Source: Xenococcaceae cyanobacterium MO_167.B27
Lineage (GTDB): Bacteria > Cyanobacteriota > Cyanobacteriia > Cyanobacteriales > Xenococcaceae
DNA length: 33,108 nt
NCBI GenBank assembly: GCA_030065935.1
Contig: JASJCP010000044.1
Coordinates: 1-33,108, forward strand
Reading direction: 5' to 3'
Positions 5,632 through 8,033 of the stretch are shown here, one piece after another. A program made the translations under genes and the position numbers. The notes below the pieces were generated by a model. The model had not been told where the DNA came from. It saw nothing but the letters and a program-made list of their open reading frames with translations, and ran no database searches. Numbering within the stretch: position 1 is the stretch's first letter; every line of letters starts with the position of its first letter.

Positions 5632-5762
5632 GATGTTTAAATTACTGAAACGAGCCAAAAACATTGTAGCGAATCAGTCCGTCTTCTCTCTAAGAAATTT
5701 CATCAAATTAATGTAGTTATGGCAATAGTTACTAAAAACATAGTCAAATATTACATCGACTC

Positions 5763-6995
5763 TTATTTAGCTGCACCAGGAGTAACCCTGATAGGACGAA
5801 CTACAACGCCCTCTATCCCTTGGCTGAAAGCTGTTGGGACTACTTTTCTCAAAATGTTATAACTGCCATTAACGTCTGCATTAATTCTGGTTTTTTCTCC
5901 TTTGATTTTGTATGTCCCCCTCTTTTCTCGATAACCGCTAAACTTAATCTCTTTAGCATTATCATCACCGTAGTTAGGGATAAAATCTAAGTTCAAAAAA
6001 CTAGCGCGAGATGTATAACTTTCTTCGCTGGTTATCACCTTAATTCCCTTCATTGCTCCTTTATAGCTCAACATCTCAATGAATCTAGCATGAGGGATAT
6101 TGACAAAAGATTGATTATTCTTTTTGCCATTATTAATTTCTTGCTTCCAGAAAGGATTTTTGCCAATAACTAACTTGCCAATTCCTTGTTGATCTAGATG
6201 ATTGATTATCCATCTCGATGCTTGATGTAAATAGGTATCTACTCGATTATTCCGATTAGCAGTTATTCTTTGAATTAGTTGAGATGTTTGCTGATTTGAG
6301 CCAAGCTTTGATTGAAGGAAAGCTTTTCTTTTATTATAGAATTGGTTGATACTTTTAAGCGGTCTTCCGTTAATCAGAATAGGAATGAATCCTCTTTGAT
6401 TTGATGTTAAAGCTGCTAAATTGCTGACTCCAATATCTATAGCTGCTATAGCTTCAGTATCATTTACTGCATGGTGTTCAGGTTTTTCATAAACTATCTC
6501 AATTACATACTGACCTATTTTGGGAATAATCCTAGCCTGAGCTATGTTTTTGGCTTTGGTAGTAACTAATATATCCGTACCCGATAGCTTAACTTTGTTC
6601 TTTTTCAACCAAGGTTTACTAATGGCTTGGATGGTGTAAATTAGTAAATTACGCCCTTTAGTTTTATGTTTGTATTTAGGTAACTTTGGTCTGCCAGTAA
6701 ATAGATTGGGATTTTCTTTATAAGCTTCACTCGCCGAAAAAAATGATTTCCAGTTTTTATCCAAAACCTTGAGTACCTGTTGGCTTACTTTTCTAGGTAG
6801 AGCTTGATAGTCTGGCTTATCTTTTACTAGATGATAAACTTGATTAAAGCCTAGATAAGTTTTGTTAAAGATAAATGACTGACGAACTAAATAGTTAGCA
6901 TAGTTGTAGAGATTTTTAGATAAAAAACATAATTGGTCTATTTGTTGCCAAATAGGATTATTTTTTTTAACTATATGTCTCTCAACCTGTCTCAC
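5763..6995 (-). CDS. tnpB: TnpB-family RNA-guided nuclease-like protein (IS200/IS605), probably without canonical RuvC-II Glu
   Basis: This 410-residue OrfB/TnpB protein starts at a GTG. The N-terminus (MRQVERHIVKK, DQLCFLSKNLYN) and C-terminus belong to the IS608-like branch. RuvC-I is AAIDIGVSN (D187) and RuvC-III is INADVNGSYNI (D374). At the usual RuvC-II glutamate the sequence is LVIGKN, giving glycine at 278; the nearest acid is E286 in FWKQE. The zinc-finger region ESYTSRASF lacks cysteines. No tnpA is adjacent, so any mobility would depend on a partner elsewhere. A CAGG/CCTG hairpin (5777-5790) overlaps the 3' end, where guide RNAs of this family usually lie. The frame is intact. Confidence 0.9.
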   Translation of the reverse strand: MRQVERHIVKKNNPIWQQIDQLCFLSKNLYNYANYLVRQSFIFNKTYLGFNQVYHLVKDKPDYQALPRKVSQQVLKVLDKNWKSFFSASEAYKENPNLFTGRPKLPKYKHKTKGRNLLIYTIQAISKPWLKKNKVKLSGTDILVTTKAKNIAQARIIPKIGQYVIEIVYEKPEHHAVNDTEAIAAIDIGVSNLAALTSNQRGFIPILINGRPLKSINQFYNKRKAFLQSKLGSNQQTSQLIQRITANRNNRVDTYLHQASRWIINHLDQQGIGKLVIGKNPFWKQEINNGKKNNQSFVNIPHARFIEMLSYKGAMKGIKVITSEESYTSRASFLNLDFIPNYGDDNAKEIKFSGYREKRGTYKIKGEKTRINADVNGSYNILRKVVPTAFSQGIEGVVVRPIRVTPGAAK

Positions 6996-7122
6996 ATTTT
7001 TCTTTAATTCCTCTTGCTATTATCTCATGATTTGCCAGTATTTTTTTTCTAGAAAGATTTGATAATATTTGATTATATATAAATATATTTTCATTGAATG
7101 ATTAAAATACCCGTTAAATGTC

Positions 7123-7232: not shown

Positions 7233-8033
7233 TTAAGTTTCTGAGGTTGTGGAGTTGCTGAAAGTAGGAGATAGAAAGGCTACTGTTGCACCTAGGACAA
7301 ACCCAATAACATTACGAAATAAGGGTAATAAATCAGCCGTCCGTGTCACTACTGGTCCAATACCAAAAGCAAGAAACAAAATTCCCCACAAAGGTGACAT
7401 AATCAAAGCCCATTGCCAAGCTACCATTTGTCCTTCTTTTCTTGGTATTGCTGCTAATCCAAAGATTACACCCCCCAAAATAGAACTAATGAGAGTTAAA
7501 ATCCATTGTTCTTTGGGTAAGCCAGGAACTACATTACAGCCACCTTGAACCAAACAACCTTTTACTACATGGAGAGCTTCTACAATGGAATTATTTTCCC
7601 CGTTTTCTCGCACGTAATACATATTGCCAAAGCGAGTTTGCAATTCAATCCAAAAGGTACGAGGTAATAATTCATACACATCATCTCCAATGCTAAAGGC
7701 TAAAATGTTACCCCCTCTACCATCTGCTACCAGGAGAATGCTCTTATCATCTAGACCCCAATATTTGATTACGGCTCTACCAGGAGTGCGATCATATTGA
7801 GTTAGGACTCGCATTTTCCATCCTGTTTCTGCTTCAAAGCTTTCTAGATCTTCAATTAAAGATTCTTCTTGAAGAGTAGGTAAAAAGTTAGCTAAATCTA
7901 CTACAGGAATTACTGTATCGGGTAACAACTCTGGATTATTAACCGCCAAGGCTGTGGGGGTAAATAAGGTAGCAAATATTAACAAACAACTACCAATAGA
8001 AAGCAATAATCGTTGTACAAAATTTTTTTGCAT
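7233..8033 (-). CDS. TPM-domain membrane protein (second Psb32/TLP18.3-like protein)
   Basis: This 266-residue protein has a signal peptide at 1-30 (hydrophobic, ending ALA). A TPM domain lies at about 35-170 (VIPVVDLANFLPTLQEESLIEDLESFEAETGWKMRV... is its opening). Two or three membrane helices sit at the C-terminus (about 178-260: WILTLISSILGGVIFGLAA, WALIMSPLWGILFLAFG, IGFVLGATVAFL). It is distinct from Psb32, which has one C-terminal helix. It also carries two cysteines in VKGCLVQGGCN. TPM domains of this type are associated with photosystem II upkeep in chloroplasts and cyanobacteria, but the role of this paralogue is unknown to me. It appears monocistronic. Confidence 0.75.
   Translation of the reverse strand: MQKNFVQRLLLSIGSCLLIFATLFTPTALAVNNPELLPDTVIPVVDLANFLPTLQEESLIEDLESFEAETGWKMRVLTQYDRTPGRAVIKYWGLDDKSILLVADGRGGNILAFSIGDDVYELLPRTFWIELQTRFGNMYYVRENGENNSIVEALHVVKGCLVQGGCNVVPGLPKEQWILTLISSILGGVIFGLAAIPRKEGQMVAWQWALIMSPLWGILFLAFGIGPVVTRTADLLPLFRNVIGFVLGATVAFLSPTFSNSTTSET

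What the first reader, a model, noticed from the sequence alone, without database searches (positions are those of the whole stretch)
5763..6995. TnpB with glycine at the RuvC-II glutamate position and no zinc-finger cysteines
D187 and D374 are kept, but the RuvC-II segment reads LVIGKNPFWKQE, giving Gly278 where active TnpBs have Glu, and the ESYTSRASF region has no cysteine pair. IS608-like relatives share the VIGxNxxWKQ pattern as I recall, so either E286 acts as a relocated catalytic residue or the branch is nuclease-dead and binds RNA-guided targets only. The gene is otherwise intact and lacks tnpA. Selection may therefore keep it for a function other than transposition.
Basis: partly seen in the sequence, partly recalled or inferred. 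Interest (0 to 1): 0.55.

Follow-up and report, generated by a model that had tools for sequence, protein, structure and literature searches.

The report
TnpB with relocated catalytic glutamate
This is a transposon-borne RNA-guided nuclease gene from a cyanobacterium whose active site looks broken at the usual place but is most likely complete, because one of its three metal-binding residues sits next to the neighbouring strand, an arrangement already known from related enzymes.

Summary
The ORF at 5763-6995 (-) is an intact TnpB with D187 and D374, no acid at the usual RuvC-II glutamate site, no zinc-finger cysteines and no tnpA beside it. E286 is not the substitute: it is Glu in only 80 of 173 relatives and sits in a low-confidence loop of the model. 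E325 is Glu in 173 of 173. It lies 46 residues after the usual site, directly after the next beta strand, where published 'alternative glutamate' (Ealt) TnpBs and Fanzors carry theirs. Two zinc-finger TnpBs of the same genome have Glu there too; 30 canonical ones do not. The gene is under purifying selection. Its 3' end overlaps an omegaRNA scaffold with covarying hairpins and a pseudoknot, ending in CTAT before a variable guide. In a relative, an empty site shows insertion next to GTAT. Best reading: a tnpA-less IS200/IS605 element with a probably active Ealt TnpB, not a nuclease-dead regulator. None of the 173 relatives has the zinc-finger cysteine pair; I did not find this variant in the papers I could search, but the main classification paper is not held. 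Cleavage was not tested.

The parts
5763..6995 (-). tnpB, 410 aa, GTG start; Ealt TnpB without zinc-finger cysteines
6435..6437 (-). codon of D187 (RuvC-I)
   Evidence: D in 173 of 173 relatives
6159..6164 (-). codons of G278 and K279; the canonical RuvC-II Glu aligns with K279
   Evidence: 30 of 30 canonical TnpBs have E at this column; 0 of 173 relatives are acidic at 278 or 279
6138..6140 (-). codon of E286, not conserved, in a loop of low model confidence
6021..6023 (-). codon of E325, proposed relocated catalytic Glu (Ealt)
   Evidence: E in 173 of 173; C-7 spacing; directly after strand 319-324
5874..5876 (-). codon of D374 (RuvC-III)
   Evidence: D in 172 of 173, one gap
5725..5819 (-). 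omegaRNA scaffold, 3' part (95 nt; the 5' end is not determined), overlapping the 3' end of tnpB
5794..5811 (-). omegaRNA hairpin 1; its loop 5799-5804 pairs with 5725-5730 (pseudoknot)
   Evidence: 99.4% and 98.0% of cells paired
5776..5791 (-). omegaRNA hairpin 2
   Evidence: 92.1% of cells paired, 3 of 5 pairs changed on both sides in some sequence
5732..5770 (-). omegaRNA terminal stem: 5766-5770 with 5732-5736
   Evidence: 80.8% of cells paired, 4 of 5 pairs changed on both sides in some sequence
5705..5724 (-). predicted guide, first 20 nt of the flank after the right end (length assumed)
   Evidence: sequence diverges between copies directly after CTAT
5725..7106 (-). the element, left end at 7106, right end at 5725
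   Evidence: similarity of copies ends there; ends set by the empty site of a relative
7107..7110 (-). GTAT beside the left end: target motif, predicted TAM
   Evidence: empty site of a relative has a single GTAT; GTAT at the left end of this copy

Best explanation
A tnpA-less IS200/IS605 element carries an Ealt TnpB: an RNA-guided DNA endonuclease whose RuvC metal site is made of D187, E325 and D374, the glutamate having moved from the end of one RNase H strand to just after the next. The protein binds the omegaRNA made from the 3' end of its own mRNA (scaffold 5725-5819 and upstream, guide from 5724 down), recognises DNA that carries GTAT followed by the guide sequence, which is the empty donor site, and probably cuts it, so that repair from a filled copy keeps the element. 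Transposition would need a Y1 TnpA acting in trans. Supported by results here: fold, conservation, purifying selection, omegaRNA structure, element ends, target motif and movement of a relative. Inferred: that E325 binds metal, that the protein cuts, and that this copy can still move.
For: E325 is invariant in 173 of 173, while E286 is Glu in 80. E325 to S332 has the Ealt spacing to the first zinc-finger Cys, ungapped in 173 of 173; two same-genome zinc-finger TnpBs (L019, L020) have E at C-7, 30 canonical ones have none; L019 has G-N at 278-279 and E at the E325 column. Tree: zinc-less Ealt rows together 100/99 and with L019/L020 100/99. Model pLDDT 90.9, pTM 0.85, strands 272-279 and 319-324; fold of Cas12f, TnpB and mimivirus Fanzor2. 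dN/dS 0.08-0.14 and fewer synonymous changes over the omegaRNA overlap in 11 of 11 pairs. omegaRNA pairs. Empty site and two 99% copies in a relative. Published: Ealt enzymes (PMC10711439, passages) and one active ortholog of clade RII-r5 with rearranged RuvC-II (PMC10278001, passage).
Against: No cleavage was measured, and the model's coordinates were not returned, so the distance between E325 and D187/D374 is unknown. Invariance of E325 could be structural. Whether clade RII-r5 is the same as Ealt could not be seen. No TnpA lies beside this copy, no empty site of this copy was found, and no close copy in the genome is near-identical (the best complete one is 79%), so recent movement of this copy is not shown. 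RNAalifold alone found only hairpin 1; the pseudoknot hardly varies, so covariation does not test it.
Confidence: 0.75

Rival explanations
1. Nuclease-dead, RNA-guided DNA-binding protein (TldR-like), kept for gene regulation at a chromosomal target.
For: The canonical RuvC-II Glu and the zinc-finger cysteines are missing, no tnpA lies beside the gene, and the omegaRNA is intact. TldRs arose several times by RuvC inactivation (PMC13418256, passages).
Against: D187, E325 and D374 are kept in 173, 173 and 172 of 173. The guide with GTAT has, besides its own site, two matches at 3 mismatches in the genome, no more than the reversed-pattern control (2). Neighbouring genes are not shared with close relatives in the loci seen, apart from the TPM gene in L024. 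Relatives are multicopy and mobile.
Confidence: 0.1
2. E286 is the relocated catalytic glutamate.
For: It is acidic (E or D) in 100 of 173 relatives.
Against: Non-acidic in 73 of 173, including close relatives with F, Y or S; in a stretch with pLDDT under 50.
Confidence: 0.03
3. An active RNA-guided enzyme of the same build with another substrate or another cleavage mode, for example nicking, RNA processing only or little collateral cutting.
For: PMC10711439 suggests that the repositioned Glu may reduce trans-cleavage (passage); PMC10278001 reports orthologs that process omegaRNA without activity in its dsDNA screen (passage).
Against: Nothing measured here bears on the substrate.
Confidence: 0.12

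Closest known systems
Ealt TnpBs of the D-Phi-G type (PMC10711439)
   Same: D-Phi-G RuvC-I motif (DIG), non-acidic canonical site, Glu at the position seven before the first zinc-finger Cys, omegaRNA with pseudoknot
   Different: The zinc-finger cysteines are absent; the published regular expressions require CxxC...CxxC (section 10) and would not match this protein
Pro-Fanzors, Fanzor2 and Fanzor1
   Same: Ealt position and TnpB fold; model matches mimivirus Fanzor2 9b0l, Z 18.1
   Different: DIG instead of DPG at RuvC-I; no zinc-finger cysteines; no IS607 recombinase was looked for
Canonical TnpB (ISDra2) and Cas12f
   Same: Domain build and fold, Z 20.3 (8exa) and 21.5 (8j1j); D-E-D triad in kind
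   Different: Glu in another place; no zinc finger
RII-r clades of TnpB (PMC10278001)
   Same: Rearranged RuvC-II; one RII-r5 ortholog cuts dsDNA (passage)
   Different: Whether the window protein belongs to RII-r3 or RII-r5 could not be seen
TldR, nuclease-dead TnpB-like repressors
   Same: TnpB-derived with guide RNA
   Different: The proposed nuclease residues are conserved here; no partner gene or chromosomal target was found

Membership tests
RNA-guided TnpB (NF040570) | family profile over its curated cut-off | tested here: met
   196.4 bits against 100
[quoted passage not shown]
   structure and conserved right end followed by variable flank, by sequence only; no RNA was measured
RNA-guided TnpB (NF040570) | guided DNA cleavage | not testable with these tools
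   no experiment
Canonical (Ecan) TnpB | Glu at the end of the RuvC-II strand | tested here: not met
   G278-K279; 0 of 173 acidic there, 30 of 30 canonical TnpBs are Glu
Ealt TnpB | Glu seven residues before the first zinc-finger Cys position | tested here: met
   E325 before S332, ungapped in 173 of 173; L019 and L020 have E at C-7. The Cys itself is Ser here, so the place is set by alignment
Ealt TnpB as selected by the published RegEx | CxxC...CxxC after the Glu | tested here: not met
   0 of 173 have CxxC in 325-374; RegEx from section 10
Pro-Fanzor | DPG at RuvC-I together with Ealt | tested here: not met
   DIG at 187-189
TldR | inactivated RuvC residues | tested here: not met
   D187, E325, D374 kept; rests on E325 being the third residue
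TldR | guide matching a chromosomal regulatory target | tested here: not met
   only chance-level matches with GTAT at up to 3 mismatches over 16 guide bases; a shorter seed was not tested
IS200/IS605 element | insertion 3' of a short target motif, no other target change | tested here: met
   empty site with a single GTAT, in a 59%-identical relative, not in this copy
IS200/IS605 element | Y1 transposase TnpA in the element | tested here: not met
   none of 43 Y1_Tnp matches is on this contig; tnpB-only elements are classed as IS1341-like (recalled)

The most novel reading that the evidence does not exclude
The window gene belongs to a large, still mobile lineage of Ealt TnpBs, in cyanobacteria and also in Chloroflexi genomes and viral contigs, that has given up the zinc finger altogether. 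Its TNB domain would work without zinc, with a conserved ASFLD.D...RG stretch (residue 337 acidic in 173 of 173) in its place, and published searches keyed on CxxC pairs would have missed it. If active, it is a compact nuclease with both a moved glutamate and a metal-free target-binding domain.
Probability: 0.35. Interest if true: 0.45.

Novelty: new member of a known kind. Interest (0 to 1): 0.28.

Why it matters
It shows that an active site that seems broken when read motif by motif can be whole, and that such genes should not be labelled nuclease-dead on the missing RuvC-II glutamate alone. The clade offers natural test cases for what a moved glutamate and a lost zinc finger do to cutting, collateral activity and target binding, with a defined omegaRNA scaffold and a predicted GTAT TAM that make the test direct.

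Tried and rejected
Empty site for this copy: the TPM-domain gene was compared in 29 related loci and proA in 27. Within the 1.5 kb flanks held, the two genes were not found side by side, and in the same-genus loci L241 and L242 similarity upstream of proA starts 3' of the insertion point, so no empty site was found. L024 also has its element next to the TPM gene, but at another spacing and with unlike flanking DNA; whether the two insertions are one event is open.

Rfam found nothing in the window at gathering scores. phmmer with the single protein found no solved structure at 0.01; the profile of A2 did. RNAalifold alone found only hairpin 1. The other helices were drawn by eye and then counted on the same sequences, so the structure was not chosen independently; two of the five measures are less clear than the rest (pairs with double change: 9 of 500 shuffles as high; further pair types: 28 of 500), and the hairpins overlap codons, so coding constraint is mixed in.

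Rows dropped before counts. Proteins: 207 loci with a match, 181 full length, 173 unique. omegaRNA: of loci at 50% identity or more (six were left out beforehand as duplicates or fragments), 25 gave no right-end match and 75 did; one was excluded and 16 gave no start match, leaving 58. Nine of these were left out (three with loop inserts, four with a wrong start, two others), giving 49; 15 more, whose hairpin 1 is shifted by one base, were left out, giving 34 rows, 33 distinct. Among the rows left out, some have a TACTT loop that breaks a pseudoknot pair, while L078 and L064 have TAGCT, which pairs fully with AGCTA (seen by eye, not counted).

The tree is rooted at the midpoint, has flagged long branches, and 22 of 500 label shuffles were as clustered as the Ealt set because its 30 canonical rows were in no group; I rely on the branch supports. 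In a first script canonical rows were extracted wrongly for part of the loci and were redone.

TnpA beside relatives: tblastn with 11 sequences taken from the genome's Y1 loci, one of which (from L272) is evidently not a TnpA, listed four loci; in two (L012, L049) TnpA lies about 40 bp from tnpB. This is not a sensitive search. IS607 recombinases were not looked for.

Literature: the PNAS 2023 classification of TnpB and Cas12 (recalled DOI) is not held, so I could not see how the RII-r clades are defined or whether a zinc-less clade is named there. The searches for relocated glutamate or missing zinc finger were made; in their listings I saw no paper on zinc-less TnpBs, but most subscription papers are not held and most listed papers were not opened.

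Full report
What was checked. The finding names a TnpB at 5763-6995 with Gly at the RuvC-II glutamate position, no zinc-finger cysteines, E286 as a possible substitute, and no tnpA. The ORF is there on the minus strand, 410 aa with a GTG start. It matches OrfB_IS605 and Cas12f1-like TNB in Pfam and guided_TnpB in NCBIfam, 196.4 bits against a cut-off of 100. The genome holds 21 matches to this protein, 129 guided_TnpB matches and 43 Y1_Tnp matches, fragments included. 43 of 60 related genomes have a match. The closest named relatives are MAGs of Pleurocapsa and Xenococcaceae.

The catalytic site. From 207 loci with a match I took 173 unique full-length proteins. D187, E325 and G278 are present in 173, D374 in 172 with one gap; E286 is Glu in 80. 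In four MAFFT modes the canonical Glu of 30 of 30 canonical same-genome TnpBs falls on K279, one residue after G278; no relative is acidic at 278 or 279. So the usual glutamate is really gone, but E286 does not replace it. The residue that behaves like a catalytic acid is E325, 46 residues after K279, in the motif EESYTS. Its neighbour E324 is Glu in 166 of 173; residue 337 is D or E in 173.

Why E325. PMC10711439 (outline, passages and sections 10 and 26 seen) describes TnpBs and Fanzors with an alternative glutamate six residues upstream of the zinc-finger motif, placed consistently in predicted models. PMC11423790 (passages) places the catalytic Glu between the fifth strand and the TNB domain. 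In the window protein E325 and S332 have the Ealt spacing, ungapped in 173 of 173. Two TnpBs of the same genome, L019 and L020, keep a zinc finger and have Glu at C-7; the 30 canonical ones have F, W, Y, P, H or K there. L019 has G-N at 278-279 and Glu at the E325 column. In a tree of 43 same-genome rows the 11 zinc-less Ealt rows group with 100/99 and join L019/L020 with 100/99, apart from the 30 canonical rows (midpoint root, long branches flagged). The model (mean pLDDT 90.9, pTM 0.85) has strands at 272-279 and 319-324, so the old and the new place lie at the ends of successive strands, while 285-289 and 293-296 have pLDDT under 50. It matches AsCas12f (8j1j, Z 21.5, rmsd 4.0, 345 aligned), ISFba1 TnpB (8iaz, 21.0, 4.1, 339), ISDra2 TnpB (8exa, 20.3, 4.1, 324) and mimivirus Fanzor2 (9b0l, 18.1, 4.5, 352). 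Coordinates were not returned, so no distance was measured.

Zinc finger. None of the 173 has CxxC between 325 and 374; 113 have no Cys there, 42 one, 17 two and 1 three. This is a property of the whole sampled set, not of this copy.

Selection. Against 11 close relatives, dN/dS is 0.08-0.14 in the 10 that are not saturated; dS is near or above 1, so the ratios are rough. In the codons from 390 on, the share of synonymous differences is lower than in the rest in 11 of 11 comparisons (0.06 against 0.55 for L050), which points to a second constraint on the DNA.

The RNA. Similarity to the complete copies runs from about 7111 to 5725. The right end finishes in CTAT, followed by sequence that differs between copies. 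The 95 nt before that point can form hairpin 1, hairpin 2, a terminal stem and a pseudoknot between the loop of hairpin 1 and the last six bases. On 33 distinct sequences 93.1% of cells pair (82.3% in shuffles), 10 of 21 pairs show changes on both sides in at least one sequence, and the covariation score is 0.324 against 0.137, with 0 of 500 shuffles as high; sliding the partners gives 36-50% paired. By helix the cells paired are 99.4 (hairpin 1), 98.0 (pseudoknot), 92.1 (hairpin 2) and 80.8% (terminal stem). The pseudoknot hardly varies and is supported by conservation rather than covariation. A pseudoknot is required for activity of ISXfa1 TnpB (PMC10711439 section 26).

Mobility and target. 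Microcoleus vaginatus HSN003 (G060) has two copies 99% identical to the element of L028, whose protein is 59% identical to the window's: one at the same site as in G058, one elsewhere. The flanks of the second occur side by side in G058 with only GTAT between them. So this element inserts next to GTAT and has moved recently, as far as 99% identity tells. The window copy has GTAT at 7107-7110 beside its left end. Its guide, with GTAT, has in the genome its own site and two matches at 3 mismatches, as many as the reversed-pattern control.

Conclusion. This is an Ealt TnpB in a tnpA-less IS200/IS605 element with an intact omegaRNA region. A complete, relocated RuvC triad is the simplest reading, and PMC10278001 (passages and section 13) reports one active ortholog with a rearranged RuvC-II, in clade RII-r5; whether that clade is Ealt I could not see. 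Nuclease death is not supported. The kind is known. The zinc-less form did not turn up in the searches I could run, but the main classification paper is not held.

Noticed in passing
L025 and L053 (apparently one locus in two collections) and L027, right-end region: The same in-frame 24-nt insert lies in the loop of omegaRNA hairpin 1 in two different genomes; a small repeat that is tolerated in both the protein and the RNA.
   Followed up: partly
L003, right-end region: A 45-nt GC-rich insert lies in the same hairpin loop of a same-genome copy that also carries stop codons.
   Followed up: no
L019 and L020 (own genome): TnpBs with the alternative glutamate and an intact zinc finger, DLG at RuvC-I; next to L019 lies a Y1 transposase. 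They look like the nearest zinc-bearing kin of the window clade in this genome.
   Followed up: partly
L009, L010, L011, L012, L014, L015 (own genome): Copies with DPG at RuvC-I and Glu at the E325 column, the pair of features called the Fanzor fingerprint, but without zinc-finger cysteines in the readable part; L012 has TnpA of the Y1 type about 40 bp away.
   Followed up: no
window 7233-8033 and L024: In G049, of another family of the same order, a 78%-identical element also lies just downstream of the TPM-domain gene, but at another spacing.
   Followed up: partly
whole genome G000: 129 guided_TnpB matches and 43 Y1_Tnp matches, many partial, in 7.0 Mb: a heavy load of such elements.
   Followed up: no
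L108, L109, L121, L123, L125 and L130-L209: Relatives of the window protein lie in Ktedonobacter, Anaerolineae and Poribacteria records and in 80 loci of IMG/VR contigs; the viral nature of the latter was not checked.
   Followed up: no
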